DNA from: Runella sp.
GTDB taxonomy: Bacteria; Bacteroidota; Bacteroidia; Cytophagales; Spirosomataceae
Assembly: GCF_027484545.1 (NCBI RefSeq)
Contig: NZ_JAIXST010000084.1
Location: 1 to 58,053 of the forward strand
DNA length: 58,053 bases
Reading direction: 5' to 3'
In this document: positions 6,508-57,440 of the stretch, in pieces
How the letters are laid out: every line of letters starts with the position of its first letter
Numbering within the stretch: position 1 is the first letter of the stretch
Program-made: the position numbers and the translations under genes
Notes under the pieces: generated by a model
Databases searched by the model: none
What the model was told of the DNA's origin: nothing
Seen by the model: only the letters and a program-made list of their open reading frames with translations

Positions 6508-6645
6508 ACCCCAACGCAACTCTGTTGCTTAATTTTCCAGCTATCTGTTACAACACATTAGGAATTTGGGATAAGTTGCGGCAGCAACCCCAAAGGCCGA
6601 AGTGTTGTAACAGATAGCGAGGCCCAGCGGCCGGGAGCGACACAA
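6508..6645. repeat. Structured repeat, copy A
   Basis: The 5-prime hairpin is GCAAC-TCT-GTTGC (6516-6528). The outer stem 6540-6556 pairs perfectly with 6602-6618 (17 bp). The 45-nt centre holds TTTGGG/CCCAAA enclosing GTTGC-GGCA-GCAAC. GGCC at 6595-6598 can pair with GGCC at 6621-6624. The 3-prime part ends GAGCGACACAA, as in copy B. It sits antisense between the HTH gene and the primase gene. Copies B-D at 53.6-57.4 kb share this plan. Confidence 0.85.
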
Positions 6646-6647
6646 AA

Positions 6648-6914
6648 TCACCCCTTTTTATTTCCTTCCATCATCCCCTCAATATCCTCCATCTCATAAA
6701 AAATCTTGCCCCCAATCTTGGTAAACGGCAACTGCCCCGTTACCCGTAAATGTTGAAGTGTACCCGGAGATATGCCCAGGAGTTCTCTGACTCCGGACGA
6801 TTGAAGATACTTTTTGTTACTGCCCGGCTGATCTTTCAAAGCCTCCTTAATTTCGGCCACTAACTCTTTTTTAAAATGCTGCAAATCTTCTTTGGTAATG
6901 ATTTCTACTGCCAT
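6648..6914 (-). CDS. Excisionase-like helix-turn-helix protein
   Basis: An 88-aa protein with an N-terminal helix rich in Lys and Glu (about 5-30) and a MerR/HTH_17-like DNA-binding domain (about 38-80). The latter shows SSGVRELLGISPGTLQHL and the wing LPFTKIGGKIFYEMEDIE, typical of the small HTH proteins paired with integrases and primases on Bacteroidota mobile elements. It lies upstream of the primase on the same strand, with structured repeat A between them. It may be a recombination directionality factor or a regulator of the primase. Confidence 0.85.
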   Translation of the reverse strand: MAVEIITKEDLQHFKKELVAEIKEALKDQPGSNKKYLQSSGVRELLGISPGTLQHLRVTGQLPFTKIGGKIFYEMEDIEGMMEGNKKG

Positions 6915-7116
6915 ACATATTGGTTTGATGTGAGAAAATTTGAGGATAAATGAGCCCCTTTACCCTCGTTTAAACTCCCTTGAAAGGAGTGGCAAAGTTC
7001 TCAATCAATTTCCAACTAATTTCCCAAGATGAACAACTGGGGAAAAACATTTTATTTGATATACTTTGGGTAGAATTATCTAACAGAAGCAAAAGCAAAG
7101 AAGAAAATAGGAGTCG

Positions 7117-7161
7117 AAAAGCCAAAACTCCCAAGTTCACATATTGGGAGTTTTGGCTTTT
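7117..7161. terminator. Strong terminator after the rteC-like gene
   Basis: An 18-bp perfect stem (7117-7134 with 7144-7161) with A and T tracts on its two flanks. It overlaps the stop codon of the minus-strand RteC gene by one base. Confidence 0.85.
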
Positions 7162-7976
7162 TAGGTATTTTGTTGCTCTTCTCTAATCCGTTCAACCAAC
7201 TGCGAACGCAGTAGATTTAGAAATTTCGTAGAAGTCTTGCGGCTTTTGATGTCGGCAAAGGTTCGGTAAAAGTCTTCCAATTCAATGTGGAATACCTGCT
7301 CAAAAACAAGGGCTATTTCGCTCAACTCCACATTGCCGTTGTTCAAAGACTGTGCCGAGTGCAGCGCATAAATCAACTCTACCAAATCCACTTTGGAGTC
7401 CGTCCAATTTAATTGGCTCACTGATGAAGACCTTACCGGATGGCCTTTTACTTTTAACTCGTCTTGAATATAGGCAACTATGGACTTGTTGGCTAATAGC
7501 TTTGCTAACACATGGTCGTAGGAGGTACTGAAACTACGTTCAAAACAATAATAGTCCGGGTCGACGAGGTACCTATTCATTTCGCTATTGCCTCGCATAA
7601 ACAATTTCTCATCTAAGAAAGTATCGCCCGACTTTATATAGCGGTAAAAGCTATGATGACGTTTGCGATATTCCCGAATTCGCTTGAGCGTCTTGTGGTA
7701 TTGATTTCTCACACTTTCCGTTGTGTCTTCTGCCTTGCGGGCAGATGAATTATAGAGCCAAACGTGGTAGAGCAATTTCGCCAAAAACTTAGGCTTCACT
7801 TTTTTGAAAAAATTAATTTCCTCCTCCGCAGACTCAAAACCCGTCTTCAGTACCTGTTGCCTCAATCGTTCAAGGTATTTATCACAAATGTTGACCGCTT
7901 GGTTAGCATATTTTATCTGATTTCCCTCCTGAATCTGGGCTAATTCTTTTTCTAATGATTGATAAAGTTCCTCCAT
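7161..7976 (-). CDS. rteC: RteC-type regulator of mobile element transfer
   Basis: A 271-aa protein matching the RteC family. The C-terminal half carries the conserved stretch WTDSKVDLVELIYALHSA (about 190-207), then EIALVFEQVF, LEDFYRTFADIKSRK and KFLNLLRSQLVERI. In CTnDOT, RteC activates transcription of the excision genes, so here it probably controls excision or gene expression of this element. It is at the far end of the element from the integrase. An ATCCCC/GGGGAT hairpin (7999-8029) lies just upstream of its start and may belong to its leader. No rteA/rteB pair is present. Confidence 0.85.
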   Translation of the reverse strand: MEELYQSLEKELAQIQEGNQIKYANQAVNICDKYLERLRQQVLKTGFESAEEEINFFKKVKPKFLAKLLYHVWLYNSSARKAEDTTESVRNQYHKTLKRIREYRKRHHSFYRYIKSGDTFLDEKLFMRGNSEMNRYLVDPDYYCFERSFSTSYDHVLAKLLANKSIVAYIQDELKVKGHPVRSSSVSQLNWTDSKVDLVELIYALHSAQSLNNGNVELSEIALVFEQVFHIELEDFYRTFADIKSRKTSTKFLNLLRSQLVERIREEQQNT

Positions 7977-8273
7977 TATTTTTTAATTATAGTTATTGAA
8001 ATCCCCCAAAGGAAGGTCAGAGGGGATTTAAGTATGAAACAAAACTTTATGATTATTTACTACAGCTCTTTCGATGTTGATAATTCTACAAATCCCTCAA
8101 CCGCATGGTTTGCGGCTCTTTAAGTCAGCGTTAAATAGGTCAAAGAAGGATTAACGCAGGGACCCTCCTCCGTCGGTGACGAACACGTTTTTGCAGCCCT
8201 GCACCTATTTGTATTTGTTCCATGCCGATGTTTTAGTATCTTTATCTATATGGGCGGTTCCCATTTCGTGATT
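7977..8273. other. Intergenic stretch at the inner edge of the left mobile element
   Basis: It contains the AAATCCCC/GGGGATTT hairpin (7999-8029), a short CCGCA/TGCGG hairpin followed by TCTTT (8101-8120), and a small GMC-like coding remnant (8151-8204). I looked here for a copy of the tRNA-Pro 3-prime end as attR and saw none. Confidence 0.5.
8151..8204 (-). pseudogene. Possible remnant of a GMC oxidoreductase C-terminal motif
   Basis: The minus strand reads GCKNVFVTDGGGS within an 18-codon frame bounded by stops on both sides. GCKNVFVTDG resembles the conserved C-terminal segment of Bacteroidota GMC/glucose-dehydrogenase-type flavoproteins. Nothing else of the gene remains. It may have been lost when the element to its left inserted. 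The stretch is short, so chance resemblance is possible. Confidence 0.3.
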
Positions 8274-10895
8274 CTACTTCCCAAACTCCAGCCATTGAAG
8301 ATTCAGTGTTTTCCAAATATTGGCACCTCCCAATGCTTCACGGTACACCACATATACATCATGTGGTCCTTCCTGTGTACGAAGGGGAGCCGTAGTTTGT
8401 TCCGTATCTTTTCCGTTGACGGGCACTTCTGCAATGACCAATCCTGTCGGGCTGCCCGTTCTAAATTCCAGCGTACCTACCAGTTTCGGCGTATAAATAC
8501 TGGTTTTTACGGTTTTCAATCCCGTTAAATCCAGGTTCTTAAAGCAGATCCACGCACCGTTTTCGTTATAACTCATGGTGGAAGTGAACGGGGTGTTTTT
8601 CTTGGCTACCTTATAGAAAACATCCGCTTCGGCAGCCATAAATTTTGCTGGACGCAATCGAACAATGTCCTGCCCTAACAGCCCCCCGGCATCGGTGTAG
8701 CGGGCAATCAGGAAATAGCTTCCCTGCGGCTGACTCAGTTTTACACTTCCTTTTGATGAGATCTGCGGACTCGGTTTAGTAAGGGAAAGAATATACCGAA
8801 CCATCTCGGTAGCATCTTCCCTCAGGAGTTGAGGGTGCGCCGACATCACGTGGTCTTTGGTCCATACCCCTACTCCGCCATTGATGATTTTTTCGGCAAG
8901 TTTCGGAATGTCGGCCTCGGAATAACGTTTGGCTACCTCCCGATAACTCGGCCCGACGGATTTATTGTTGAGGGCGTGGCAGGCTTTGCAGTCACTTTGT
9001 TCCATCAGCGTTTTGCCCTTCAGCGTCACTTCTCCGGTCGCCATCATTCCTGCCGCGTCTTCGCCCTCGGGCAGGTAGTGAAACAGCACCTTGGTGCGTT
9101 TAGGATCCGTGGTTTTGTCTTCGCGGTCCGTCACTTTTACCTGATAATCCACTTCGCTTGCCCCGAAATAAAACGAACGGTTTCCCTGCCAATCCACCCT
9201 AACTGTTGGCGGTTCATTACCGACGCGTAATGTCAGGCTGTTTTCCGTCGCTTTTCCCTTGGGGTCGGTGACCCGTACGCGGCTTCGGTAAATACCGGGC
9301 TTGGTAAAGGTAAAGGTTGGCTCAGGCCCCCGGCCCTGCAAGGTGTTGGTCGTAAAAAACCACTCGTACTTCAGGGAGTCGGTTTTGTCGTAATCAAACG
9401 AGCCTTTGGCCGAAAACCGGACTTTCAGCGGTGCCGCTCCCACGGTTTTATTCGCCGTAATTTTGGCTACCGGCGCACGGTTACCTTCGTTGTATTCGAT
9501 GCGAACCAGCCTGGCATCGGTATTTTTGGCCCGCCAGTAAGTGCCGTATTCCAGCATGTACAGCTCGCCCTTTTTTGAAAAGGCCATATCGACAGGATGG
9601 TTAAATTCCGTCTCCGGCAGAAAACGCTCCAATTTTTCCAAATCACCGTTTTCTTTCATTTTTACCGTAAAGACCCACCCGCGCATCCAGTCATATACAA
9701 ACAGTTTTCTGTCAAAATACCGGGGAAACTTTCCCGCAAAATCATCATAATCATCGTAATAATAGACCGGTCCGCCCATGGCGTTGCGCCCGCCGGTACC
9801 CAGCTCCGGAAATTCGGGAGAATCGGCATACGGATACCAAATGAAGGCGTTTTGGGCGGGAGGAAGTTCTTTCAGCCCCGTATTGTTACGGGAAAAATTG
9901 ATGGGTTTCCGCGCATCAAACAGTTCTCCCGATTTCTTTGCGTCAAAATCATAGCGGTAATACGGCTTGTTGTTGCCGACAAACATCGGCCAACCGAAAT
10001 TTCCTGCCTGACGAGCCTGATTGATCTCGTCATGTCCTCTCGGGCCGCGCGTCAGGCTGTCATTGCCGGCATCGGGCCCTACTTCTCCCCAGTACAGAAA
10101 GCCGGTGCGACGATCTACCGATATCCGGTAGGGATTGCGACAGCCCATTACGTAGATCTCCGGACGGGTACCGGGCGTACCTTTGGGAAACAGGTTTCCA
10201 TCCGGAATGGTATAGGTGCCGTCGGATGCGGCAACCTCCGTTGTGGGATGAATACGCAGAATTTTGCCGCGCAGATCATTGGTATTTCCGGATGATTTGA
10301 GGGCATCAAAGCGTAAGCGACCGGGACGGTCATCCGAAGGAGAATAACCGTCAGATTCAAACGGACTGGTGTTATCGCCGGTGGAAAGATACAGATTCCC
10401 TTTCGCGTCAAAGGCAAGCGAGCCCGCTGAATGATTGACTCCTTCGTGCAGCAGCGGTACGCGCAGAATTTCTTTTTTGTTGATCAATCCGGTGGCTGTG
10501 ACCTCAAAACGACAAAGCACGTTGGCATACCCCTCTTTTTGAGGTACCGGGTCGCCGTAATACATATAGAGCCAATGATTGGTGCTGAAGTTCGGATCGA
10601 GGGCCAGACCCAGCAGGCCGTCTTCGGCGGTGGCACGGACATTCAGCTTGGCAATGAGCTTTTTCTTATTGGTTTTCGGGTCAAAACTATTGAGGTTACC
10701 GATCCGTTCGATATAATAAACAACCCCGTCGTCGGCAATCGCCAGTTCCATGGGTTCATTCAGGTCATCGTCCAGCACAATCTTGGTAAAACGGCTGTCG
10801 TCGGGTTTGGTGGGAACATCTGTCGCGACCGTGAATCCAGTAAAACACAAGGTCAGTAACAGAAATTTCAACGCAGTCATTTTCATTTCGTTCAT
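8274..10895 (-). CDS. PQQ-dependent sugar dehydrogenase with PKD, cytochrome c and CBM6 domains
   Basis: An 873-aa secreted protein with four modules. After a signal peptide (ALKFLLLTLCFTGFTVA) comes a GDH/sorbosone-dehydrogenase beta-propeller (about 35-450, with EDGLLGLALDPNF and GEVGPDAGND motifs). A PKD-like domain follows (about 480-560), then a cytochrome c domain (CKACH near 640, Met ligand region MSAHPQLL), then a C-terminal CBM6-like lectin domain (about 735-870). It should oxidise a sugar in the periplasm and pass electrons to its own haem. I start at MNEMKM (10895), giving the signal peptide at the N-terminus. It is the last gene of a minus-strand run of glycan genes. Confidence 0.88.
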   Translation of the reverse strand: MNEMKMTALKFLLLTLCFTGFTVATDVPTKPDDSRFTKIVLDDDLNEPMELAIADDGVVYYIERIGNLNSFDPKTNKKKLIAKLNVRATAEDGLLGLALDPNFSTNHWLYMYYGDPVPQKEGYANVLCRFEVTATGLINKKEILRVPLLHEGVNHSAGSLAFDAKGNLYLSTGDNTSPFESDGYSPSDDRPGRLRFDALKSSGNTNDLRGKILRIHPTTEVAASDGTYTIPDGNLFPKGTPGTRPEIYVMGCRNPYRISVDRRTGFLYWGEVGPDAGNDSLTRGPRGHDEINQARQAGNFGWPMFVGNNKPYYRYDFDAKKSGELFDARKPINFSRNNTGLKELPPAQNAFIWYPYADSPEFPELGTGGRNAMGGPVYYYDDYDDFAGKFPRYFDRKLFVYDWMRGWVFTVKMKENGDLEKLERFLPETEFNHPVDMAFSKKGELYMLEYGTYWRAKNTDARLVRIEYNEGNRAPVAKITANKTVGAAPLKVRFSAKGSFDYDKTDSLKYEWFFTTNTLQGRGPEPTFTFTKPGIYRSRVRVTDPKGKATENSLTLRVGNEPPTVRVDWQGNRSFYFGASEVDYQVKVTDREDKTTDPKRTKVLFHYLPEGEDAAGMMATGEVTLKGKTLMEQSDCKACHALNNKSVGPSYREVAKRYSEADIPKLAEKIINGGVGVWTKDHVMSAHPQLLREDATEMVRYILSLTKPSPQISSKGSVKLSQPQGSYFLIARYTDAGGLLGQDIVRLRPAKFMAAEADVFYKVAKKNTPFTSTMSYNENGAWICFKNLDLTGLKTVKTSIYTPKLVGTLEFRTGSPTGLVIAEVPVNGKDTEQTTAPLRTQEGPHDVYVVYREALGGANIWKTLNLQWLEFGK

Positions 10896-10959
10896 AAAAA
10901 TAATAACGGAAAAATGATTAATAAAGCAATCAAAAATAAAGGATAATCTGAAGTGAAAG

Positions 10960-12195
10960 TTACTCCTGTTTGATGCTGATCTCCTTACTTTTTGCGCTTT
11001 CAAGATTTTGATGATTTACGGCCGTAACCGTGATTTTATCCGATTGACTCAGTGAAGTAAATACATACTCAAAAAGCGGAATCGCAGGCTCTGGAGCATC
11101 GTGAAAGTTGGATTTTTGCCCCGGGACAGTTCCGGCCAATGCACCATTCCTATAAATATTAAACTGCTTTATACCGCTCTCCAAGTCAATGTCTGCCGCC
11201 CATTTCAACATGACGCCGTTCGGTGTTCCCGTACTAAGGGACAGGTTTTGCGGAGCGGGCGGCGCTGATGTATCCGTCACCCATCCCGTACGCCCAAATT
11301 CCTGCCAGTTTTGAGCCACTGACTCCGTAGGCAGCCACACCCATTTATTACGGTCGGTCTCCACTTCGTTAAAAGGTCTGATTTCGTAGGTGGTTGGATG
11401 TCCTAACCAACCTTTCAATGAATCCAACGGCATCGGTATATTTCCTGAATCAGGCAACCGCAAAGAAAGAATGGTATCAAACCACCGTACGTAAAAGCTT
11501 CGACCGTCACGGTTTCCGTGGTCAGCTTTAGGGTCAATGGCCACGCCCCATAATGCCCCCAATCGGCGGTAAGTGGCAAAGGATTTAACGGTCAATGCCC
11601 GAGCGTATTCCTGATTGTCAACAATGTCTTTTTCACCCGCCATCCACATCACAGGGACTTGTTTTACCGCTGGGTTCCACTCCATGGAGGAATACCCGCC
11701 TGACCGTGGGAGGGCGCATAAAATACGCTCGTGATATTCAAACAGCATACTCGTACACCAAAAGCCGCCCCCCGAATGCCCCCACAACGCCAAGGGTACT
11801 TTGGTAAGTTCAGGGTGATTGGTTTGTTTTGCCAACGTATCCAATCCCCTCAAAAACGCTTTCCCCGAACCGCCTGCCAAGTTAAACCATTGGGCACAGA
11901 GTTCGTAGTTGGTCAGTTCTGTTCCTATTAGCGCCATTTGGTGCTTTTGCGCCAATGCCTCCCATTGCAAATCATTAGCGTGGTTTAACCCGTGTTTGGA
12001 TGCACCGATCCCGCAGCCGTGCTGTTTGACAATGATGCCGCGAATGGTTGCGGTGTTGCGGGGCAGCCATAGCCGATATACGGCCGATTTGAATTGTTCC
12101 CCGCTCTCGGGTTGGATGTTGACTTCGAAGTATTGCCCCAATGCTCTCTGCGCACTGACCAGAAGTATAAAGAAAAATTGATAAAATGATTTCAT
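10960..12195 (-). CDS. Secreted alpha/beta hydrolase with C-terminal Fn3-like domain
   Basis: A 411-aa protein. The ATG at 12195 gives a clean signal peptide (KSFYQFFFILLVSAQRALG); the 78 residues upstream in frame are not protein-like. The nucleophile elbow is GHSGGG, preceded by KQHGCGIGAS, which may supply the oxyanion hole, and followed by GEKDIVDN and KADHGNRDG, which may hold the acid and histidine. Residues after about 320 resemble an Fn3-like domain (PPAPQNLSLS, then LKWAADIDLESGI). It is probably an esterase of a glycan or aromatic ester. It lies 103 nt after the esterase/DUF1080 gene on the same strand. Confidence 0.78.
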   Translation of the reverse strand: MKSFYQFFFILLVSAQRALGQYFEVNIQPESGEQFKSAVYRLWLPRNTATIRGIIVKQHGCGIGASKHGLNHANDLQWEALAQKHQMALIGTELTNYELCAQWFNLAGGSGKAFLRGLDTLAKQTNHPELTKVPLALWGHSGGGFWCTSMLFEYHERILCALPRSGGYSSMEWNPAVKQVPVMWMAGEKDIVDNQEYARALTVKSFATYRRLGALWGVAIDPKADHGNRDGRSFYVRWFDTILSLRLPDSGNIPMPLDSLKGWLGHPTTYEIRPFNEVETDRNKWVWLPTESVAQNWQEFGRTGWVTDTSAPPAPQNLSLSTGTPNGVMLKWAADIDLESGIKQFNIYRNGALAGTVPGQKSNFHDAPEPAIPLFEYVFTSLSQSDKITVTAVNHQNLESAKSKEISIKQE

Positions 12196-12298
12196 AGTGA
12201 AAGTTAAAGAAATGCCGTACAATTTCTTGTGGAAATTGTACGGCAAATAACCTTGGTTTCCCTTGGGTTTACTCCGCACATGTTGGCAAATTTTTCCA

Positions 12299-13810
12299 CT
12301 ATCTTGGCTTAACGCCCGTTTTGATTCTGATATTTCTGAACCATATCGGTTTACCCGCATGTTTTCCCTGAAAACCAATATGGCCTCGGGTCGGCAATTC
12401 CGACAGTGGAAACGACAGCCACGAAGCAATCGGTGTACCGTCCGGATTGGTTTTGGCAGAAGTGAACCTGTTCATTGACAGTTCATTGACCAACGTTTCG
12501 TTGAGGAATACCTGCACTTTTTGCCCCCTGCATATAATCTGGTAATGATTCCATTCTCCCGCCGGCCTGACTGCCTGTTTAATTGCCGGTTGATGCCCGA
12601 AGATCGCTCCGCACTGCCAGCTTTTGGGTTTATTGGCCCAAACCGAATCATAATCATCGGCAATCTGAACCTCGACCGAATGCGATATCCAGCGTGAGGT
12701 ATCGGCATAGACAAAAACCCCGCTGTTGGTACCCGCCGCATTTTTGAATTCAAGGTCCAGCTCAAAATTTTCATAGACTTCCTGAGTCCAGATCGGTTGG
12801 TCTTCAGTGGCCGTCAGTTCGCCGTTCTCTACACGCCATATACCCTTGGGAAAAACGGCGTTGGAAAGTGAATTTGTAAAAAGGGGTTTCCATTCCGACT
12901 CCCGTTCCTGTTTAATATATCCGAGCGCGGAAAGAAAGGCCGCTGTCTTTTCCATCGCTTCTTCATAAAGCGGTTTCTGAAACATCATGTACCCGTGAAT
13001 GCCGCCCTCGTTTACATATAACTCGCAGCGGTTGCCGGCTTTGTCCATTACCTTTTTAAAGGCGGCCGCTCCTTCGAACGGAGTCACGGTATCGCCGGTT
13101 CCGTGAAAAACGACGACGGGAGGCATCCCACTCCTGACACGGTGGAGCGGCGACAGCGTTTGCCATCCCGAACCGATCGTCTTATTGCCGTATCCTTCGG
13201 GGGAAGTATCAATCACCGGGTAATACAGCACCAAGGCATTGGGAACACAGGAAACCTTCAAATCATCCTCGGGTTCGTTTATTTCGTCAAAAAGAGCCGT
13301 TCCAATCGCTAAATGTGCACCGGCCGATCCACCGCTGACAATGATTTTGTCGGGGTCTATCCCCAGTTCATCGGAATGGCGGCGTAGATAGCGAATGACG
13401 GAACGGGCATCCTTCACACAGTCATACACCGTAGTGGGGTCTCCTTTTTTCAGCAGCCGGTATTCAGCACTGATACCTACCATTCCTTTTTCTGCCATGT
13501 GACTGACAATGGGGTAAAAACGACGCGGCTCTCCACCGGCCCAGGCTCCGCCGTGAAAGGCCACAAACACTGGCTTTTTTTCAGGGATCGCCACACCTTT
13601 CGGTTCAAAAATGTGCAGCGCCAGACTTCTGTCCGGCAGCGTTTTATAAACAACTTTTCGGTCAGGCTCCAGGGTAACCGCCAATGATGCGGCATAATCT
13701 TCCTTTTGGGTAGTTTGGGCAATAACAAAGGTTCCCGTGAAAACCGTCAGAAAAGCACCTAAAAACAGCAGCTGCCGCCCGAATGCGCCGAATTCAGCTT
13801 TTTTTCTCAT
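12299..13810 (-). CDS. Esterase fused to a DUF1080 (3-keto-glycoside hydrolase-like) domain
   Basis: A 503-aa secreted two-domain protein. Residues 35-310 are a BD-FAE/carboxylesterase-type alpha/beta hydrolase with HGGAW (86-90), GGSAG (160-164, nucleophile S162), HGTGDTVTP and the catalytic-His segment GGIHGYM. Residues about 315-500 form a DUF1080 jelly-roll domain (GIWRVENGELTATEDQ, TNSGVFVYAD, WNHYQIICRG, HIGFQ). Its start codon overlaps the stop of the upstream beta-helix gene by one base (TAATG), so the two are translationally coupled. A shorter paralog without DUF1080 lies at 26966-27841. Substrate unknown; probably deacylation plus cleavage of an oxidised glycoside. Confidence 0.87.
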   Translation of the reverse strand: MRKKAEFGAFGRQLLFLGAFLTVFTGTFVIAQTTQKEDYAASLAVTLEPDRKVVYKTLPDRSLALHIFEPKGVAIPEKKPVFVAFHGGAWAGGEPRRFYPIVSHMAEKGMVGISAEYRLLKKGDPTTVYDCVKDARSVIRYLRRHSDELGIDPDKIIVSGGSAGAHLAIGTALFDEINEPEDDLKVSCVPNALVLYYPVIDTSPEGYGNKTIGSGWQTLSPLHRVRSGMPPVVVFHGTGDTVTPFEGAAAFKKVMDKAGNRCELYVNEGGIHGYMMFQKPLYEEAMEKTAAFLSALGYIKQERESEWKPLFTNSLSNAVFPKGIWRVENGELTATEDQPIWTQEVYENFELDLEFKNAAGTNSGVFVYADTSRWISHSVEVQIADDYDSVWANKPKSWQCGAIFGHQPAIKQAVRPAGEWNHYQIICRGQKVQVFLNETLVNELSMNRFTSAKTNPDGTPIASWLSFPLSELPTRGHIGFQGKHAGKPIWFRNIRIKTGVKPR

Positions 13811-15537: not shown

Positions 15538-15547
15538 TGATATTAAG

Positions 15548-17554: not shown

Positions 17555-17606
17555 AAAAGGTCTATTAAATTTTATGGGATGTTAACATGCGGTATTCATT
17601 TAGTTG

Positions 17607-19865: not shown

Positions 19866-19886
19866 TAAAAATCGGTTTTAAAAAAG

Positions 19887-42508: not shown

Positions 42509-42514
42509 TGATGA

Positions 42515-43963: not shown

Positions 43964-43975
43964 TGTAAAGGCACG

Positions 43976-51638: not shown

Positions 51639-51756
51639 ACTGAATGGAGAAAATAGATTCTATACAAAAGGAGAGGTACATCGTTTAACAAAAAGTAACC
51701 TCGGGAATTGAATTATTTTTGGAAATAACCGAAGGATTCCTGTACGGCTTCCCTGA

Positions 51757-51909
51757 TTATCGTATCCTGCCGGCCTGACGGATGATTTGGAGGGCTTTGG
51801 GAGGGCGGTCAGTTCCCAGATAGTTCGTATGGTTGGTCAGCGGGCAGTTTATTCCTTTGTTGATAAACTTTGTGCTGTTACTGAAGTTGCGATGCACACG
51901 TATTTTGCC
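51757..51909 (-). pseudogene. C-terminal fragment of a beta-helix gene, cut by the accessory region
   Basis: Minus-strand translation gives RNFSNSTKFINKG, CPLTNHTNYLG, RPPKALQIIRQAGRIR and a stop. It aligns with the last about 50 residues of the 668-aa beta-helix protein at 15548-17554 (GNFSNSAKYINKG, CPLTNHTVYQG, RPEAALKIIKMAGRMS). Homology ends abruptly near 51908, and the HTH gene of the accessory region follows. The rest of the gene is missing from the window, so this marks a recombination or insertion boundary. Confidence 0.85.
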
Positions 51910-51949
51910 TTAAAATAGCCAATGCGAAAGTAGTACTGCCGCAAAGAAC

Positions 51950-52210
51950 CTACTTCACCTGAACCTCCCGTAACTGCTCCCGTCGAATCACCGTTACGTC
52001 CAACGACGCTTTTCCTCGGTTCAAAGCAAATAATACCTCCTCGTATTTCAAATAGGTAAACTCACAAAACTCCGAGACCGATACGTGCGACTTAGACGGC
52101 TTTTGCTTCTCGCGTCGAATCTTTCGAATCAATCGGTAGGCCGAAGCCTCCGAACAGCCTAACATGGCTACAATGTCCGAAGCGTACAAAACAATTCGCA
52201 GGGGTGTCAT
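51950..52210 (-). CDS. Small helix-turn-helix DNA-binding protein
   Basis: An 86-aa protein with an HTH near the N-terminus (YASDIVAMLGCSEASAYRLIRKIRREK, about 9-35), followed by a basic segment and a second helical part (SEFCEFTYLKYEEVLFALN). Small HTH proteins of this kind open many Bacteroidota mobile elements and phage-like loci. It is divergent from the thermonuclease gene, with the promoters of both in the 89-nt gap, so it may regulate the right-hand cluster. Confidence 0.75.
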   Translation of the reverse strand: MTPLRIVLYASDIVAMLGCSEASAYRLIRKIRREKQKPSKSHVSVSEFCEFTYLKYEEVLFALNRGKASLDVTVIRREQLREVQVK

Positions 52211-52299
52211 AATCGGTCAGTTTAAGTCAGCAGTCACGCAAGCTAAAAATATTCTGTTTATAGGTGTTAAAGTTGTGTCAAAATTAACCAATCAACACC

Positions 52300-52830
52300 A
52301 TGAAACGAATATTTTTCTGTCTTATCATTGCTCTGGCCACGCTCACAGCCCAAGCACAACTCCCGCTGATGCAGGGCCGCGTCGTACGCGTACTCGACGG
52401 CGACACCTTTGAATTGCTGCAAAACAGCGATGCAACAGGGGCTCAACGTATTCGTTGCCGCATCGTCGAAATTGACGCTCCCGAACGTGACCAATCCTTC
52501 GGGCGTGAGTCAGGCGACTCCCTGAAAGCCTTGCTTCTAAATCAATGTGTCACTTGTCGCCCCATTGCTCACGACCAATACCACCGTTGGCTGGTCAAAG
52601 TTACCCACCTTAATTACCACCCGGTAGCACTCGACAGCATCCTTATCTCGCGTGGTTGGGCTTGGTCGGTACGTGGTTGGAATACCAAAGGCTATCAGGC
52701 AGATGCCGATCCTGTGCAGGCCGATGCACGCTGGTTCGACCGCGGTCTGTGGAAATGTCACCATCCTGTCCCTCCATGGATTTGGCGCCGCTTCAAAGCC
52801 CCTGTCAAACGTCTTTATCAATGTCAATAA
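52300..52830 (+). CDS. Secreted thermonuclease-family (SNase) nuclease
   Basis: A 176-aa protein with signal peptide (FFCLIIALATLTAQA) and an SNase domain: VVRVLDGDTFEL (about 28-39, Asp metal ligand), IRCRIVEIDAPERDQSFG (about 50-67, Asp and Glu) and ALDSILISRGWAW. It should degrade DNA or RNA outside the cytoplasm. It is the first gene of the plus-strand block and lies 10 nt before the first of two paralogous small genes, so they are probably co-transcribed. Confidence 0.9.
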   Translation: MKRIFFCLIIALATLTAQAQLPLMQGRVVRVLDGDTFELLQNSDATGAQRIRCRIVEIDAPERDQSFGRESGDSLKALLLNQCVTCRPIAHDQYHRWLVKVTHLNYHPVALDSILISRGWAWSVRGWNTKGYQADADPVQADARWFDRGLWKCHHPVPPWIWRRFKAPVKRLYQCQ

Positions 52831-52840
52831 CTTAAAAGAA

Positions 52841-53215
52841 ATGGTCACTATCACCTACCTCACGGGCGAGAAACGCTTTTCCCTCGTTTACAATTATACC
52901 ACCAAACGAAAAGCTGTTCGCAGCGCCAATCCGAAACCAAAGACGTTCCGTTCGCTGGCTACTCAGGTGATAAGAGCCCAAGGCAGAGGTAAAACCACTT
53001 TCTCTTGGCAGCATACCACGGACAACCCTGTACTGTCATTGGAAGGAAATGCAGCCGAGGCGTATCTCTATCGCTATGAGAATGGAAACCCGCTTACAGT
53101 CACCTCTGGGTCATTACTCCAGGTATTGCAGTATCTGTTTATGCTCTCAAAAAATGGCACGGAATACCACCGGAATGCCGTTAAAACCCTCCAAATCAAC
53201 ATTAACATTGCATAA
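52841..53215 (+). CDS. Small protein of unknown function, paralog 1 of a tandem pair
   Basis: A 124-aa protein from the ATG at 52841, chosen because the longer frame upstream overlaps the thermonuclease gene. The first 55 residues (VTITYLTGEKRFSLVYNYT, NPKPK, LATQVIRAQG) align with the next gene product (TNITYDTAAKQFMLAYSYT, APKPR, LTNQVLKAQQ). The C-terminal half is distinct. It has no signal peptide or TM helix. I do not recognise the family. It lies 10 nt after thermonuclease and 6 nt before its paralog. Confidence 0.7.
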   Translation: MVTITYLTGEKRFSLVYNYTTKRKAVRSANPKPKTFRSLATQVIRAQGRGKTTFSWQHTTDNPVLSLEGNAAEAYLYRYENGNPLTVTSGSLLQVLQYLFMLSKNGTEYHRNAVKTLQININIA

Positions 53216-53221
53216 AAACCC

Positions 53222-53614
53222 ATGACAAACATCACTTATGATACTGCTGCCAAACAATTCATGTTGGCTTATTCTTATACCAATGCCAAAGGCAGAATGT
53301 TTAACGTCGCTCCCAAGCCGCGCGGCCTGACGGCCCTCACTAATCAGGTTCTCAAAGCCCAACAACGCTTGATTATTGAATTTGTCGCTAACATTACAAG
53401 TCAGGACCTTTCCACCCTCGATGCCGTGGCCACGGTGACAGGTTCAGGCAGTAATTTCATCGTGGCCATTATTGGCTACGGGGGAGAAGCCTCAAATTGG
53501 TCAACAGTAGGCGAAGCCCTGCGCGAACTGGTTCGTCTCGGCAAAGAATACTCCGACCCCAATTTCCGCAAAGCCCTCCGCAAAAAACGGTTCAGCCTGA
53601 CACTCGGAGCATAA
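53222..53614 (+). CDS. Small protein of unknown function, paralog 2 of a tandem pair
   Basis: A 130-aa protein sharing its N-terminal layout with the preceding gene product. The C-terminal part (GYGGEASNWSTVGEALRELVRLGKEYSDPNFRKAL) is mostly helical. It is followed directly by structured repeat B, which begins 26 nt after its stop. Confidence 0.7.
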   Translation: MTNITYDTAAKQFMLAYSYTNAKGRMFNVAPKPRGLTALTNQVLKAQQRLIIEFVANITSQDLSTLDAVATVTGSGSNFIVAIIGYGGEASNWSTVGEALRELVRLGKEYSDPNFRKALRKKRFSLTLGA

Positions 53615-53640
53615 GCAGGTTAATAAGTGACCCAAGAAAC

Positions 53641-53786
53641 CCCAACGGGCGTCAGCCCTGAATTTCCAGCGTTCCTATGAAGCACATTAGGGATTTCGGA
53701 TAAAGTGCGAAGCACCCGAAAGACCGAAGTGATGAATGGGAACGCGAGGCCCAGAGGCGGGGACGCCCAGTCCCAGAGCGACACAA
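53641..53786. repeat. Structured repeat, copy B
   Basis: The 5-prime hairpin is GGGC-GTCA-GCCC (53647-53658). The outer stem 53669-53685 with 53729-53745 has 17 positions per arm: GCGTTCC/GGAACGC at the base, TGAA facing TGAA in the middle and CAC/GTG at the top. The 43-nt centre has TTTCGG/CCGAAA enclosing GTGC-GAA-GCAC. The 3-prime part ends GAGCGACACAA, as in copy A. It separates the small paralog pair from the 244-aa gene. Confidence 0.85.
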
Positions 53787-53947
53787 CCAAACAAAACCCT
53801 CAGTAGCAGAAATACAAGAAATAAATCCCTACGAGTGACAAAAGGAGAAACTGCAAAACCTAAAATCAATTTTTTACTTTTTATACAACCCTCACAATTC
53901 ATACTAAACAACATGCCCCCTTCGGGGGTGGGGGCTATCAACAGCAC
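53787..53947 (+). other. Leader region of the 244-aa gene with a C(5)-TTC-G(5) hairpin
   Basis: After repeat B the sequence is A-rich and unremarkable up to a GC hairpin CCCCC-TTC-GGGGG (53916-53928), which can also pair with the following GGGGGC. It ends 20 nt before the ATG and could affect translation. No other gene is seen. Confidence 0.45.
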
Positions 53948-54682
53948 ATGGCAAAAAACGTCGGAGTCGTTCAGTTACAAGGTAACCTCGGCAACCTAAA
54001 CTTTACCAAAGACGGCCAAGTCCGTCAAAAACCTACCTCACGTCCTATCACGGCAGAGCGTACGTTGGAAAACAACAGCGAATTCAGTACCCAGGCAAAG
54101 GCCACTTCCCTGATTGGAGAAGCCTTCCGCACCTGCATCGCCAACGCCAAATCTTCCGATTGGCACAATCGTTTATCCAAAGTCACCCGTGAGGTGTTGA
54201 AACTTGATTTGACCAACCCACGCGGTCAGCGCGGCATCATTGACGACGAAACCTCGCTCTATCAGGGTTATGATTTCAACGGCAATGCTCCCATCGGCCG
54301 CGTATTGTACGCGCAGGTGTCCACTACCCTCGACCGCACCACGGGCGATTGTCAGGTCATTATTCCTGCGCTCACCCCTGCCGTGGCCATTGCTGCACCG
54401 CAGGGAGCTACCCACGTGCGTTACATTGCCTGTTCGTCCGAAGTGGATTTTGAGAACGGCAGCATCAAGGCGGCCAACGCGACCTCGGGATATACTACCC
54501 TTAACAATGCCCCACAAGCCGCCATACCACTTGCTGTGAACGTGGACGTTAATGCTGCTAAACCTATTTTCATCGGAGTGGGTCTGGAGTTTTATCAAGA
54601 GGTCAATGGTCAAAAGTACTTGTTACAAAATGGGCAATTTAACCCTTTTCAAATTGCCTCGGTAGATACGGGTATCCTGTAA
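53948..54682 (+). CDS. Conserved Bacteroidota protein of unknown function, 244-aa family
   Basis: The N-terminus VGVVQLQGNLGNLNFTKDGQVRQKP with ENNSEFSTQAKATSLIGEAFR, and the C-terminus GVGLEFYQEVNGQKYLLQNGQFNPFQIASVD, match in pattern a family I recall as widespread in Bacteroidota (usually starting with a K-G-x-I-x-L-K-G-T-I-G-D-L-x-F-Y-type motif and ending FFQEVNGxxYxLxNGxxNALxI). Members are annotated hypothetical. The central region is beta-rich with no TM helix or signal peptide. The start and end are complete. It is flanked by repeat B and a strong terminator, so it is a single-gene unit. A structural or coat-like role is only a guess. Confidence 0.75.
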   Translation: MAKNVGVVQLQGNLGNLNFTKDGQVRQKPTSRPITAERTLENNSEFSTQAKATSLIGEAFRTCIANAKSSDWHNRLSKVTREVLKLDLTNPRGQRGIIDDETSLYQGYDFNGNAPIGRVLYAQVSTTLDRTTGDCQVIIPALTPAVAIAAPQGATHVRYIACSSEVDFENGSIKAANATSGYTTLNNAPQAAIPLAVNVDVNAAKPIFIGVGLEFYQEVNGQKYLLQNGQFNPFQIASVDTGIL

Positions 54683-54688
54683 AATCAA

Positions 54689-54740
54689 ATTCACCTAATG
54701 AAAAAGCCGACTCATCATCGGCTTTTTTCATTAGGTGAAT
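54689..54740. terminator. 22-bp inverted repeat, strong bidirectional terminator
   Basis: Positions 54689-54710 pair with 54718-54740 with one bulged base. The stem contains AAAAAGCCGA/TCGGCTTTTTT. It begins 6 nt after the 244-aa gene stop. Confidence 0.85.
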
Positions 54741-54832
54741 TCCGTGCTTTACCCGTCCATAATAGCAGCTATATCCCAGCGATAAGGCTTCTGACTTGTT
54801 TACGGTTTTCCAAGTTAACCATTCAAAACAAA

Positions 54833-54861
54833 AAAGGTCGCAGCCAACGGCCACGACCTTT
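54833..54861 (-). terminator. Terminator of the holin-like/CHAP minus-strand block
   Basis: AAAGGTCG pairs with CGACCTTT, with an inner GCC-AAC-GGC. On the minus strand the stem runs into a T run, about 90 nt after the stop of the 83-aa gene. Confidence 0.65.
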
Positions 54862-54951
54862 CCGCATTACGGTTACCGAATATTTCTTCAAGAAAATCAA
54901 AGCCAATTTTAACGCTGTAGGCTGGGGACACACCACTTGGCATAAGAAAGG

Positions 54952-55203
54952 CTAAATCCCCCTGAATTGCTGTCGCTCGTATGCTTTCCAATCCACAGTC
55001 GTCTGACTGACCACCGCCGCTACTGCCCCTGCCGTCACCATATACCCTGCAATGGTTGTCACCACCACAGGCAGTGCCGCACCTGCGGTGAAAATCGTTG
55101 TTCCCACCATCCCTAAAACTAATCCCACATTCCGAATCACTCGGAAAAACTTGGGAGTAGGCGCTTTTACCCGCTCAAGTACATTCAAATCCGTGTTCTG
55201 CAT
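54952..55203 (-). CDS. Holin-like small membrane protein
   Basis: An 83-aa protein from the ATG at 55203 (MQNTDLN); the longer frame upstream is an AT-rich leader. KAPTPKFFRVIRNVG (about 13-27) precedes two hydrophobic segments (LVLGMVGTTIFTAGAALPVVVTTIAGYMVTAGAVAAVV, about 28-65) separated by a turn at about 45. The size, short N-terminus, two TM helices and position next to a CHAP amidase suggest a holin-type or export pore. I recall similar KAPTPKFF-type proteins in Bacteroidota; their function is not known to me. Confidence 0.65.
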   Translation of the reverse strand: MQNTDLNVLERVKAPTPKFFRVIRNVGLVLGMVGTTIFTAGAALPVVVTTIAGYMVTAGAVAAVVSQTTVDWKAYERQQFRGI

Positions 55204-55316
55204 AATCAGATAAATTTTAAGTATGACTGCCAATAGATAAAACTCAACTCGATGTTTCAACATGTTCATAAAAAGCCAAATCGAAGCAAACACTTCCTAA
55301 CGTCAGGGTCATAAAT

Positions 55317-55940
55317 CTAAAAAAGCGGTCGTGGCTTCGGTGCAATCCCAAACGAAACATGATCCGAAACCGTCGCCTCCTCCTTCTCCCTTAACTTCCG
55401 ATGCACTCCTTCCCCTTTAACTTTTACAAAAGAAGGAGCCGAAGTATTGCCTCCAACTGTCACAAAGTCCTCCGTTTCTTCGTCGGAGTCCCACTCCAGT
55501 ACCAGTTCTGAATGATACCGCACTCCACCTGTCCGCTGCCGCCATGCAAACACGGCTACATCTCCCGGTTGGGGTAGTTTCCTGCCACCCGACGGGCCGT
55601 TTCTCCAAATCACTCGATTGGGATAACGTATCCAGCTATATGCTACCGCAGGAGACTGTACGTTTGATTGGAGACCGCACTGTTGAAAGACCCATTCGAT
55701 AAAAGCCCCACAATAAGGCGTACCTTCTGGCAAATGTAGAATTTTCAGATACTTCATTACCTGTCCCCCGTCATTCCTCCCCGTCCGCTCCCGTACCCGC
55801 GTCTGTGACAAAGCCGTCCTTACCAAACACTTCCGCAATTCGGCTCCCCCACTGGGGGCGGGGGGGGCTGTTACCACTTGACCGTAAGCACCATCACAAA
55901 TCCCCAGAAAAAAAGCCCAATAAAAAAGCAGGTAACGCAT
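55317..55940 (-). CDS. Secreted CHAP-domain peptidoglycan amidase/peptidase
   Basis: A 207-aa protein. I choose the ATG at 55940, giving signal peptide RYLLFYWAFFLGICDGAYG; the alternative ATG is at 55952. The CHAP/NlpC-like catalytic Cys is in TPYCGAFIEWVF (C77), followed by PQPGDVAVFAW (about 123-133), the catalytic His in YHSELVLEW (H143) and the third-residue segment TVGGNTS (about 161-167). It should cut cell-wall peptide or amide bonds. Its start overlaps the end of the upstream 173-aa membrane protein gene by about 70 nt in another frame. Confidence 0.82.
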   Translation of the reverse strand: MRYLLFYWAFFLGICDGAYGQVVTAPPAPSGGAELRKCLVRTALSQTRVRERTGRNDGGQVMKYLKILHLPEGTPYCGAFIEWVFQQCGLQSNVQSPAVAYSWIRYPNRVIWRNGPSGGRKLPQPGDVAVFAWRQRTGGVRYHSELVLEWDSDEETEDFVTVGGNTSAPSFVKVKGEGVHRKLREKEEATVSDHVSFGIAPKPRPLF

Positions 55941-56392
55941 ATCAATTGCCATGGTTGAAGTTGTTGAAGATGAGTCGAAAAATCCTGTTCTGACGCGCGG
56001 TCATTAACAAAGTACTGGTGTAGATACGGCACAAAATACCGTAAAGCTTTTTCTACGAGTAACAACGCTGAGAAAAACACAATCACCGACAGCAATACTT
56101 TTTGAAAGCCTGCTATGTCAATCGGTCGCATTGAGAGGTCGTTGATAACAATATAATTGTACAGAAACCCTGCTGCCAAGAGCAAGAAAACCACCCACGA
56201 CAAACTCTTTAAACGACCCACCGTGTTAGTTGGCATAGAGGAGGTAGGCTTTTCCCGGGCTCGTCGTTGTATCTCTTTGCGTTCCTCAATCAGTGCTGCC
56301 AAAGCATTGTGCTGATTCTCCAATTCTTCGATTGGTATTTCATCCATTTTGAGGTTTTTTGAAACTCCATTCAAACTCTCTGTTCGTTTCAT
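55871..56392 (-). CDS. Three-TM membrane protein of unknown function
   Basis: A 173-aa protein from the ATG at 56392 (MKRTESLNG). A charged coiled-coil-like region (about 21-47, EELENQHNALAALIEERKEI) is followed by three TM helices (about 64-84, 98-115 and 149-170). Its 3-prime end overlaps the CHAP gene start by about 70 nt, so the two are coupled. With the holin-like 83-aa protein this forms a block resembling a lysis or wall-crossing module. Repeat C begins about 50 nt upstream of its start, in the opposite orientation. Confidence 0.7.
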   Translation of the reverse strand: MKRTESLNGVSKNLKMDEIPIEELENQHNALAALIEERKEIQRRAREKPTSSMPTNTVGRLKSLSWVVFLLLAAGFLYNYIVINDLSMRPIDIAGFQKVLLSVIVFFSALLLVEKALRYFVPYLHQYFVNDRASEQDFSTHLQQLQPWQLICVTCFFIGLFFWGFVMVLTVKW

Positions 56393-56440
56393 AAAATTGT
56401 TTAGTTTGATTAATGTTATCCCTTGCAAACGATAGAAAAA

Positions 56441-56620
56441 GTCAACGGGCGTCAGCCCTTCATTTCCGGCTTATTGCATCCTCACTTCAGGAATTTCGGA
56501 AAAGCTTCGATAGCAGCCCGAAAGGTCAAAGTTCGAATACAACAAGCGAGACCGCCCAGACCTGAAGCGGCTTTGTCCTCACAAGCAGTGAAACAAAATA
56601 ACTCCTCAAACCCATTCACA
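56441..56620. repeat. Structured repeat, copy C (most diverged)
   Basis: The 5-prime hairpin is GGGC-GTCA-GCCC (56447-56458), as in B and D. The outer stem 56469-56485 with 56531-56547 pairs GCTTATTG/CAACAAGC (one A-C mismatch) at the base and more weakly above. The 45-nt centre has TTTCGG/CCGAAA with GCT/AGC inside. GGTC (56524-56527) is complementary to GACC (56550-56553), replacing GGCC/GGCC of copies A and D. The 3-prime boundary is uncertain. Confidence 0.7.
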
Positions 56621-56815
56621 AAGAAACACGCGCCACAATTGCCCATTCCTGCCTAACAAATTCCGCTCAACCCCTATCATCCCTGACAGTCTCAACCCAA
56701 CTACTGCACTAATCACTCTAATTTCGTCAAGCAGTTCTCCAAGCACTATATGCTTTTTGCTGACTGCTAACTGCTAACTGCCAAAACAATCGTTCACTTA
56801 TTAACAGCTTCTTTT
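56621..56815 (+). other. Intergenic region before the 151-aa gene
   Basis: Besides a short tandem repeat (CTGCTAACTGCTAACTGC, about 56765-56782) I see no gene or hairpin. It may hold the promoter of the plus-strand 151-aa gene; no convincing box was found. Confidence 0.4.
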
Positions 56816-57271
56816 ATGTCTTTTAATCCCTCACACGGTATCGCCATTTTACGCCATTGTGGCATTCATGTCAACATCGCTGGCGCACATTCACCCAACA
56901 CCAGTATTTTTACTAATTGGGAAGAATTTTATCAATGGTTTCAGGACTACGTCACCAATCACCCCGATTCCCGCTTTCACCTCATTGGTTGCGGCGATGG
57001 CTATAACCTTGATGCCCCTTTTCGCATTGAATGGTTTGGCGCAGGTGTATGTCCCATTGAACACCGCAATACCTGCACCCTAAGCCGCTGGCATTACGAA
57101 ACGAATCAGTATGTAGAAATCAACCCCGAACTGACCACCCATGGTACGGTAAAAGCCACGCTGGATCGCCTCCATTTTATCTATTGCAACGGCACCGAAG
57201 GCCACCGTACGGCCATCGCTACCTTCAACATAGACGCCGTCTTCATCAACTCCAACGGAACCGCTGTTTAG
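56816..57271 (+). CDS. Orphan protein of unknown function, 151 aa
   Basis: A complete ORF without signal peptide or TM helix. It starts SFNPSHGIAILRHCGIHVNI, contains WEEFYQWFQDYVTNHPDSRFHLIGCGDGYN (about 37-66), then FGAGVCPIEHRNTCTLSRW, and ends in a Thr/Asn-rich strand. The cysteines are dispersed and no catalytic motif is recognisable. It is bracketed by structured repeats C and D, one gene per block. Confidence 0.6.
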   Translation: MSFNPSHGIAILRHCGIHVNIAGAHSPNTSIFTNWEEFYQWFQDYVTNHPDSRFHLIGCGDGYNLDAPFRIEWFGAGVCPIEHRNTCTLSRWHYETNQYVEINPELTTHGTVKATLDRLHFIYCNGTEGHRTAIATFNIDAVFINSNGTAV

Positions 57272-57305
57272 CCCTATAAAACAAGGAAAGCGGAGTATAT
57301 ACAAC

Positions 57306-57440
57306 CTTAATGGGCGTCAGCCCTTCATTTCCAGCTCTCTCGTGAAGCACATTAGGAATTTGGGATAAGTTGCGGCAGCAACCCCAAAGGCCGCAGTGCT
57401 GAATGAGAGAGCGAGGGCCGTCCGCCCATGAGGACAACAA
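57306..57440. repeat. Structured repeat, copy D
   Basis: The 5-prime hairpin is GGGC-GTCA-GCCC (57312-57323). The outer stem 57334-57350 with 57396-57412 reads GCTCTCTC/GAGAGAGC, then G-T, TGAA facing TGAA, and GCAC/GTGC. The centre is identical to copy A at 44 of 45 positions, although the outer stem is unrelated to A. GGCC at 57389-57392 can pair with GGCC at 57416-57419. Confidence 0.88.

What the first reader, a model, noticed from the sequence alone, without database searches (positions are those of the whole stretch)
6508..57440. A family of four structured repeats with covarying helices, restricted to the two accessory regions
Copies A (6508-6645), B (53641-53786), C (56441-56620) and D (57306-57440) share one plan: 5-prime hairpin, TTCC-A/G-GC, 17-position arm, 43-45-nt centre with an inner hairpin, 17-position arm, GCGAG. 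Base changes keep pairing in every helix: 5-prime hairpin GCAAC/GTTGC against GGGC/GCCC; inner helix TTTGGG/CCCAAA against TTTCGG/CCGAAA; tip GTTGC/GCAAC against GTGC/GCAC against GCT/AGC; outer arms unrelated yet complementary. This is strong evidence that a folded nucleic acid is selected. I recognise no known riboswitch, ribozyme, attC, REP or retron msr-msd. None of the copies lies in the 45 kb between the accessory regions.
Basis: partly seen in the sequence, partly recalled or inferred. Interest (0 to 1): 0.9.

Follow-up and report, generated by a model that had tools for sequence, protein, structure and literature searches.

The report
Dispersed pseudoknotted RNA repeats in Cytophagales
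The folded repeats are real and belong to an apparently undescribed family of structured, RNA-like repeats that lie mostly just after genes in one order of bacteria, with around a hundred copies in some genomes.

Summary
The four repeats are real. A, B and D fold strongly; C is a decayed copy. The window's genome holds two more, E (contig C343) and F (C332, between ordinary genes), so the family is not confined to accessory DNA.

A covariance model from A-E found copies in five other species of the genus. A second found the family in two more Cytophagales families. A third gave 104 matches, the cap, in each of two genomes. No Rfam family matches. Of 395 genomes sampled across the class, 4 had a hit, all of this order.

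The fold is under selection: 188 double-changed cells against 51 ± 7 in shuffles. The P2 loop pairs downstream through three interchangeable base-pair types: a pseudoknot. In 60 further copies the main helix holds 117 G·T pairs and one A·C, so one strand folds. The gene before the repeat runs in its direction in 74 of 100 copies, by simple ORF calls.

I read it as a small interspersed repeat of the BOX/ERIC kind whose RNA folds in the 3' part of messages. Transcription, function and the moving enzyme are not shown. Four copies of one Pontibacter genome lie inside miniature transposons.

The parts
6512..6640 (+). Copy A, whole core (5' hairpin to GAGCGA)
   Evidence: model R3 84.5 bits. It lies antisense to both neighbours (HTH_17 gene and toprim/AAA gene, both on the - strand)
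6516..6528 (+). A: 5' hairpin GCAAC-TCT-GTTGC
   Evidence: equivalent seen in the genus only
6540..6556 (+). A: P1 5' arm (17 nt, pairs with 6602-6618)
   Evidence: 17 of 17 Watson-Crick pairs
6602..6618 (+). A: P1 3' arm
6621..6632 (+). A: P2 hairpin GGCC-CAGC-GGCC
   Evidence: its loop keeps only 2 of 4 pseudoknot pairs
53641..53781 (+). Copy B, whole core; between ORFs 53222-53614 and 53948-54682, both +
   Evidence: R3 80.6 bits
53669..53685 (+). B: P1 5' arm (pairs with 53729-53745)
   Evidence: 13 WC + 1 G.T + 3 G.A
53729..53745 (+). B: P1 3' arm
56441..56592 (+). Copy C, decayed copy, between divergent ORFs
   Evidence: 12 WC, 3 A.C, 2 other of 17 in P1; fold z -0.91; R3 19.6 bits, E 0.0026, C not in the training set
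57306..57436 (+). Copy D, whole core; between ORFs 56816-57271 and 57499-57957, both +
   Evidence: R3 79.9 bits
57334..57350 (+). D: P1 5' arm (pairs with 57396-57412)
   Evidence: 14 WC + 1 G.T + 2 G.A in tandem
57396..57412 (+). D: P1 3' arm
57415..57427 (+). D: P2 hairpin GGGC-CGTCC-GCCC
57420..57435 (+). D: pseudoknot, loop GTCC 57420-57423 with GGAC 57432-57435, 4 bp

Best explanation
The repeats are members of a family of small interspersed repeats of Cytophagales whose plus strand folds, most likely as RNA. SHOWN by sequence: (1) one strand folds into a long helix P1 (17 positions with a common tandem G·A), an inner helix with a variable tip, and a short hairpin P2 whose loop pairs just downstream (pseudoknot), followed by a conserved GAGCG-like word. 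(2) The fold is kept by compensatory change between families and between copies of one genome. (3) Copies lie mostly between genes and preferentially downstream of a gene read in the same direction. (4) Presence and copy number vary between species. INFERRED: the repeat is transcribed as the 3' untranslated end or intercistronic spacer of the gene before it. There the pseudoknotted hairpin blocks exonucleases, or is cut by a double-strand RNase, and so sets the life or the end of that message. It spreads rarely, as a passenger: by DNA transposases when it lies inside a miniature element (four copies of one Pontibacter genome lie in such elements), and by recombination between copies, which exchanges helices. 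In the window, A, B and D are sound copies and C is decaying.
For: Structure: covariation; within one genome (32 copies of G528) 40 double-changed cells against 12.7 ± 2.5. Pseudoknot: in 122 of 132 copies where the script found P2, loop base 3 and its downstream partner are G-C 69, T-A 29, C-G 16, i.e. 114 of 122; 358 pairs against 294.7 ± 5.4 in 2000 shuffles. Strand: P1 G·T 94 against A·C 12 in 72 copies (of the 12, 7 come from rows with misplaced arms and 3 from C); 117 against 1, and G·A 130 against C·T 3, in 60 further copies. Position: upstream gene in the same direction 47 of 60 and 27 of 40 (ORFs of 100 aa or more), together 74 of 100 (p 2e-6); ++ against -- 39 to 17 (p 0.005), a test that a mere excess of convergent sites cannot produce; convergent 35, divergent 9. 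Occupied and empty sites in the genus. Module exchange: 17 helix combinations among 29 fully classified copies of G528.
Against: There is no transcription or decay data. The position bias may show where an insertion is tolerated, not what it does; the authors of PMC3049150 (passages read) argue this way for BOX, RUP and SPRITE. Copy A is antisense to both neighbours and C lies between divergent genes. The 40-copy set alone shows no significant ++ / -- bias (13 to 8, p 0.38), and at ORF cut-offs of 130 and 160 aa its upstream count falls to 25 of 40 (p 0.15). Genes were called by simple ORF rules; at 80 aa an ORF overlaps the repeat in 15 of 40 loci, one of 551 aa. Seven of 13 genus genomes lack the repeat, so no essential role. 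Two P1 positions give 87 of the 117 G·T pairs and are inherited, so the counts are not independent events. In G528 the number of doubly changed pairs (7) and of pair types (16) is not exceptional (44 and 146 of 500 shuffles reach them), and P2 and the pseudoknot change together there, so they may be one exchanged block.
Confidence: 0.5

Rival explanations
1. Single-stranded DNA element: the folded plus strand is recognised as DNA by an HUH (Y1, IS200/RAYT-like) transposase, and selection on the fold is selection for mobility.
For: Strand-specific folding is also what such enzymes need (recalled). Y1_Tnp genes occur in 13 of 13 genus genomes, 9 matches in G000.
Against: G006 and G007 carry the repeat and have one weak Y1_Tnp match each (E 2.9e-5 and 4.5e-4), though their copies may simply be inherited. 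No recurrent neighbour gene in the 25 largest of 72 neighbour clusters. The bias towards the direction of the gene before it is not what a replication-strand substrate predicts, but replication direction was not tested. REP tag tetranucleotides were not looked for.
Confidence: 0.15
2. Purely selfish miniature element: DNA transposases move it, the structure matters only for tolerance or for its own upkeep, and it does nothing for the host.
For: In G351, 4 of 8 examined copies lie in 306-321 bp elements with 13/13 terminal inverted repeats that match a 1028-bp IS with a DDE_Tnp_1_3 transposase in the same genome. Two of them show 8-bp flanking repeats by eye (L206, L212). Position bias can be tolerance.
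Against: Those ends are scarce in G431, G499, G506 and G528. Unselected miniature elements decay, yet copies 9-29% apart (45 best pairs) keep pairing and a pseudoknot.
Confidence: 0.18
3. Independent small RNA genes (a multi-copy trans-acting ncRNA).
For: Complex conserved fold with conserved stretches downstream (such as ATGAAACAAT); in G528 and G501 some sequence just upstream is conserved too.
Against: No upstream sequence is shared between genomes by eye; no promoter scan was run on the copies. Sense bias to the gene before it.
Confidence: 0.1
4. Retroposed RNA (a bacterial SINE): the folded transcript is copied back into DNA by a reverse transcriptase made elsewhere.
For: Structured RNA-like core at high copy without common DNA ends; sense bias.
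Against: By eye no target duplications or A-tails in 18 flank pairs (18 of 43 copies tried gave both ends). No reverse transcriptase search was run.
Confidence: 0.05
5. Guide RNA scaffold of a TnpB-type nuclease.
For: Hairpins plus a pseudoknot occur in such RNAs (recalled).
Against: PF07282 found in 3 of 22 carrier genomes (G499, G506, G528), none in G518 (104 matches to R3) or G000.
Confidence: 0.02

Closest known systems
BOX, RUP and SPRITE repeats of Streptococcus pneumoniae (PMC3049150; passages read)
   Same: Intergenic, 125, 110 and 30 copies in one genome, predicted to fold as RNA, enriched between convergent genes, BOX modular and in some cases shown there to be transcribed, novel insertions now slow.
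   Different: Different phylum and sequence plan. Here one asymmetric strand folds with a pseudoknot, and compensatory change spans families. No fixed terminal inverted repeats in the family as a whole.
ERIC / RU-1 repeats of enterobacteria (PMC2229807, PMC2759123: search listings and abstract starts only)
   Same: About 127-bp intergenic mobile repeats; an effect on co-transcribed messages is cited in PMC3049150 (passage read).
   Different: ERIC is an imperfect palindrome (recalled). Here there are several nested helices with internal covariation and a pseudoknot.
REP / BIME / REPIN and RAYT (PMC3733652, abstract start and passages; PMC3116915, listing and abstract start only)
   Same: Repeated hairpins outside genes, possibly message stabilisers.
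   Different: REPs are 20-40 bp (abstract start of PMC3733652); this core is 110-170 nt.
BRE of Betaproteobacteria (PMC3110155; passages read)
   Same: Short repeat of about 90 bp in many copies; one copy overlaps detected small RNAs.
   Different: Unrelated lineage; fold not compared here.
Miniature elements of a DDE_Tnp_1_3 IS (IS982-type by recall) in G351 (this work)
   Same: Some copies of the repeat are their cargo.
   Different: The inverted ends belong to the transposon, not to the repeat family.

Membership tests
Rfam families (release 15) | Score at or above the family's gathering cut-off | tested here: not met
   Window: only 2 tRNAs. 16 loci at E up to 5: best hit over a repeat is MIR8562, 23.3 bits against a cut-off of 211
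Small interspersed repeat (BOX/ERIC kind) | Short, many similar copies at unrelated loci, mostly between genes | tested here: met
   Counts; no recurrent neighbour in the 25 largest of 72 clusters; loci; overlapping ORFs of 80 aa or more in 15 of 40
Small interspersed repeat (BOX/ERIC kind) | Extensive secondary structure on transcription | tested here: met
   (sequence evidence only)
Small interspersed repeat (BOX/ERIC kind) | Actually transcribed | not testable with these tools
   No RNA data at hand
[quoted passage not shown]
   Present in 4 of 8 examined copies of G351 and in neither of 2 of G391; the same end is scarce in G431, G499, G506, G528; flanks viewed in other genomes differ
MITE | Target site duplication | tested here: inconclusive
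   8 bp by eye at L206 and L212, weaker at L208 and L209; none evident by eye in 18 flank pairs or at the genus empty sites
REP/RAYT | 20-40 bp palindrome with GTAG- or CGTC-type tag | tested here: not met
   Core is 110-170 nt with nested helices; the tag itself was not searched
REP/RAYT | Linked Y1 transposase | tested here: inconclusive
   Y1_Tnp in 13 of 13 genus genomes, with and without the repeat; no recurrent neighbour
TnpB guide RNA | TnpB gene in the genome | tested here: not met
   PF07282 in 3 of 22 carrier genomes, 2 over the cut-off
attC (integron) | R'/R'' core sites and integron integrase | not tested
   Conserved ends TTTCCAG and GAGGCC do not look like attC cores (recalled motif); not searched

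The most novel reading that the evidence does not exclude
A bacterial counterpart of a SINE: a pseudoknotted non-coding RNA that multiplies to around a hundred dispersed copies. The fold of every copy, not only of a master copy, is under selection, because the folded transcript is both the functional part in host messages and the thing that is recognised when the element spreads. Its helices act as interchangeable modules.
Probability: 0.15. Interest if true: 0.85.

Novelty: new variant of a known kind. Interest (0 to 1): 0.62.

Why it matters
Small interspersed repeats are often seen as decaying parasites whose hairpins are by-products. Here a complex fold with a pseudoknot is kept by compensatory change across several genera and between copies of one genome, on one strand only, with a preference for the 3' side of genes. 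That makes testable whether a repeat family has become a general message-end element in a bacterial order, and how it spreads. The covariance models allow the family to be annotated in Cytophagales genomes, where it can reach about a hundred copies and could disturb transcript-end maps and ncRNA screens.

Tried and rejected
Tried without result: BLAST of D against phages and plasmids, of one Pontibacter copy (L344) against both and of one G518 copy (L237) against plasmids: no match. First exact patterns against viral contigs and genome contigs found nothing because I had written 19 instead of 18 free positions. A looser pattern gave 69 viral stretches, none of which fits model R2 at E up to 1. 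A further pattern gave 0 viral stretches. Two proteins of the right-hand region gave no relative in viral contigs. Weak hits in G034 and G037 (E about 0.08-0.1) were 52 and 64 nt and dropped as chance. The G382 hit (E 0.015) was left out. The Thiodictyon hit was not examined and may be chance.

Considered and rejected: Rfam classes; TnpB guide RNA; gene-linked element; family-wide MITE with fixed ends. The idea that the family belongs only to mobile DNA was rejected by copy F and those of relatives. For alignment A7 I chose 55 of 72 copies by hand, leaving out C and near-duplicates.

Weak points: rows with misplaced arms stayed in the wobble counts (L188, one row of L197, L210, L224, L230; L354, L388). 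The script looked only for downstream words of the form (A/G)A-G.., so the last loop pair there is partly forced; the loop-3 pair is not. Model E-values are rough (short calibration). Above 40 genomes the search uses stricter filters and scores few candidates, so may undercount. The counts can include the same copy read on both strands: for G010 it gives 3, but a direct search shows 2 copies, one of them matched on both strands. The neighbour comparison held some places twice, and only its 25 largest clusters were printed.
Full report
WHAT IS THERE. The RNA fold of A, B and D beats all of 200 shuffles (z -6.9, -4.8, -6.9); C does not (z -0.91, 35 of 200 shuffles as good). With DNA energies A, B and D again fold (z -8.9, -5.1, -5.0), C does not (-0.95), and copy E does (-5.3). 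The window is a whole contig, G000:C151, of a 7.1-Mb genome. BLAST of D against that genome adds a fifth copy, E, on C343 (5828-5938, 78% identity). A covariance model of A-E (R1) adds a sixth, F, on C332 (18393-18501, minus strand, E 8e-15). C is a decayed copy: 12 of 17 P1 pairs, 3 A-C mismatches, and 19.6 bits in a model that was not trained on it.

WHERE THE COPIES LIE. A sits between an HTH_17 gene and a toprim/AAA gene of an integrase-bearing left region and is antisense to both. B and D each lie between two plus-strand ORFs without family hits; C lies between divergent ORFs. E lies between a DUF932 gene and a DUF3799 PDDEXK gene. F lies between a 186-aa gene (no Pfam hit) in an efflux-type operon and an FtsX-like permease, in the direction of both (operon and permease labels are mine from the translations). 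The copies of G001, G004, G006 and G007 lie just upstream of a GFO/IDH-type oxidoreductase gene and in its direction; one of the two copies of G010 shares a flank with them. In the 10 genomes aligned at that place, G002, G003, G011 and G012 are empty; G000 and G005 have other sequence upstream and cannot be compared. At the permease site G000 and G010 carry the repeat and the other 6 of the 8 genomes aligned do not (5 of 13 were not placed by my script). So the family varies by presence, inside otherwise conserved gene neighbourhoods. The restriction to accessory DNA is a feature of this window only.

SPREAD. Model R1 over 222 genomes of the family: 6 genus genomes, plus two weak hits that I drop. 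Model R2 (12 genus sequences) over 390 genomes of the order: 30 genomes in 6 of 129 genera at E 0.1 or better, including one (G382) that I leave out. Model R3 (55 sequences) over 395 genomes sampled across the class: 4 genomes, all of this order. R3 with finer filters over 29 chosen genomes: 22 positive. Matches: 104 each in G518 and G528 (the number of candidates scored, a cap), then 64, 52, 50, 45, 44, 35, 28, 20 and 19 in nine other genomes of the same two genera, 6-9 in five genomes of family f19, 5 in G000, 3 in G010, 1 each in G001, G004, G006 and G007, none in 7 of 13 genus genomes. Matches can count one copy on both strands: G010 has 2 copies. Pontibacter belongs to the order Cytophagales, whence the name of the order here. 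No copy was found with the queries used in phage or plasmid records or viral contigs.

THE FOLD IS SELECTED. In 12 genus sequences 87.3% of cells pair and 38 cells have changed on both sides, against 10.7 ± 2.8 in shuffles. In 55 of 72 copies across genera the figures are 88.1% and 188 against 51.1 ± 7.4; sliding the partner by 1-3 columns gives 29-60. Inside one genome (32 copies of G528) 40 cells against 12.7 ± 2.5, though the numbers of doubly changed pairs (7) and of pair types (16) are not exceptional there (reached by 44 and 146 of 500 shuffles). The outer arm occurs in that genome as GUCUUUGGG/CCCGAAGAC, GUCCUUGGG/CCCGAGGAC, GCCUUUGGG/CCCGAAGGC and a wobble form between them. Shuffles ignore relatedness, so they are not probabilities.

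PSEUDOKNOT. In 122 of 132 copies in which the script found a P2, loop base 3 and its partner are G-C in 69, T-A in 29 and C-G in 16 (114 of 122). All pairs together: 358 against 294.7 ± 5.4 in 2000 shuffles, maximum 314; over the 29 distinct combinations 73 against 62.9 ± 3.2, reached by 4 of 2000. D shows it fully: GTCC with GGAC, 4 bp. Genus copies with loop CAGC (A and F among them) keep only two of these pairs, so the pseudoknot is weak or different there.

WHICH STRAND. G·T pairs fold, their complements A·C do not. In P1, 72 copies give G·T 94 and A·C 12, of which 7 come from misplaced rows and 3 from C. Sixty further copies give 117 and 1, and G·A 130 against C·T 3; 87 of the 117 stand at two positions. 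This fits RNA and would also fit single-stranded DNA; the gene-direction bias leans to RNA.

POSITION. With simple ORF calls (100 aa or more) the gene before the repeat runs in its direction in 47 of 60 new copies and 27 of 40 earlier ones; the gene after it in 30 of 60 and 18 of 40. Together 74 of 100, p 2e-6; for repeats between two genes of one direction 39 sense and 17 antisense, p 0.005; convergent 35, divergent 9. At cut-offs of 130 and 160 aa the 60-copy set gives 45 of 60 and 45 of 59, the 40-copy set 25 of 40 (p 0.15). The 40-copy set alone is not significant for the sense/antisense test (13 to 8).

NEIGHBOURS AND MOBILITY. ORFs around 76 loci (some places twice) were compared all against all. 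In the 25 largest of 72 clusters no neighbour recurs around many copies: the two largest are translations of the repeat itself, the others join two to four places. In G351, 4 of 8 examined copies lie in 306-321 bp elements with 13/13 inverted ends. The same ends, ACGTGAACTCNGGAAT, bound a 1028-bp IS whose protein is a DDE_Tnp_1_3 transposase (the name IS982 is mine, from recall). Eight-bp duplications are seen by eye at L206 and L212. Flanks viewed in other genomes differ. Among the 45 best-scoring pairs of copies the identity is 71-91%, so no recent burst is seen there. In G528, 29 fully classified copies show 17 combinations of four helix types; some types go together, such as inner type I2 with tip T3, so exchange is not free. 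This is expected if copies exchange segments by recombination.

MECHANISM. I take it to be a small interspersed repeat that acts, if at all, at RNA level in the 3' part of the preceding message; confidence 0.5, with the steps marked in the best explanation. The position bias may be tolerance only, as argued for the pneumococcal repeats (PMC3049150, passages).

COMPARISON AND NOVELTY. BOX/ERIC-type repeats are the nearest kind. No Rfam family matches. Ten literature searches in the open PMC library showed, among the rows listed, no paper on such a repeat in Cytophagales; several searches had far more papers than rows. I read listings and, for PMC3049150, PMC3110155 and PMC3733652, passages. Subscription papers are not covered, so 'not in print' is not claimed beyond those rows.

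Noticed in passing
window 1291-7976: Left region: tyrosine integrase near tRNA-Pro, YhcG/DUF1016 nuclease, toprim/AAA protein, HTH_17 and RteC genes, an integrative-element look.
   Followed up: partly
window 52652-57957: Seven ORFs (52652-53215, 53222-53614, 53948-54682, 54952-55293, 55871-56428, 56816-57271, 57499-57957) without a convincing Pfam, PHROG or NCBIfam hit, beside an SNase and a CHAP-like protein; two of them without relatives in viral contigs.
   Followed up: partly
L009 (G000:C343) 1246-16018: Island with AAA/DUF4143, SLOG, DUF932, DUF3799 and ThiF genes and, by its translation, a subtilase-like gene around copy E; may be a defence island.
   Followed up: no
L256 and G351/G391 genomes: 1028-bp DDE_Tnp_1_3 IS with miniature relatives of about 200-370 bp in two Pontibacter genomes; copies of the repeat inside them seen in G351 only.
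   Followed up: partly
L023/L019 downstream flank, L154: Short repeats with ATGACAAA words next to the permease gene in the genus, like the CGTC-tagged repeats of PMC3733652 (resemblance by eye).
   Followed up: no
L226, L210, L212, L219, L223: The tip of the inner hairpin is invaded by other short palindromes (e.g. GAGGGCCCCTACCCCC, CCTGCCTGCCGGTAGGCAGG).
   Followed up: no
L287: One exact pattern hit in a Thiodictyon MAG, outside the order; chance, contamination or transfer.
   Followed up: no
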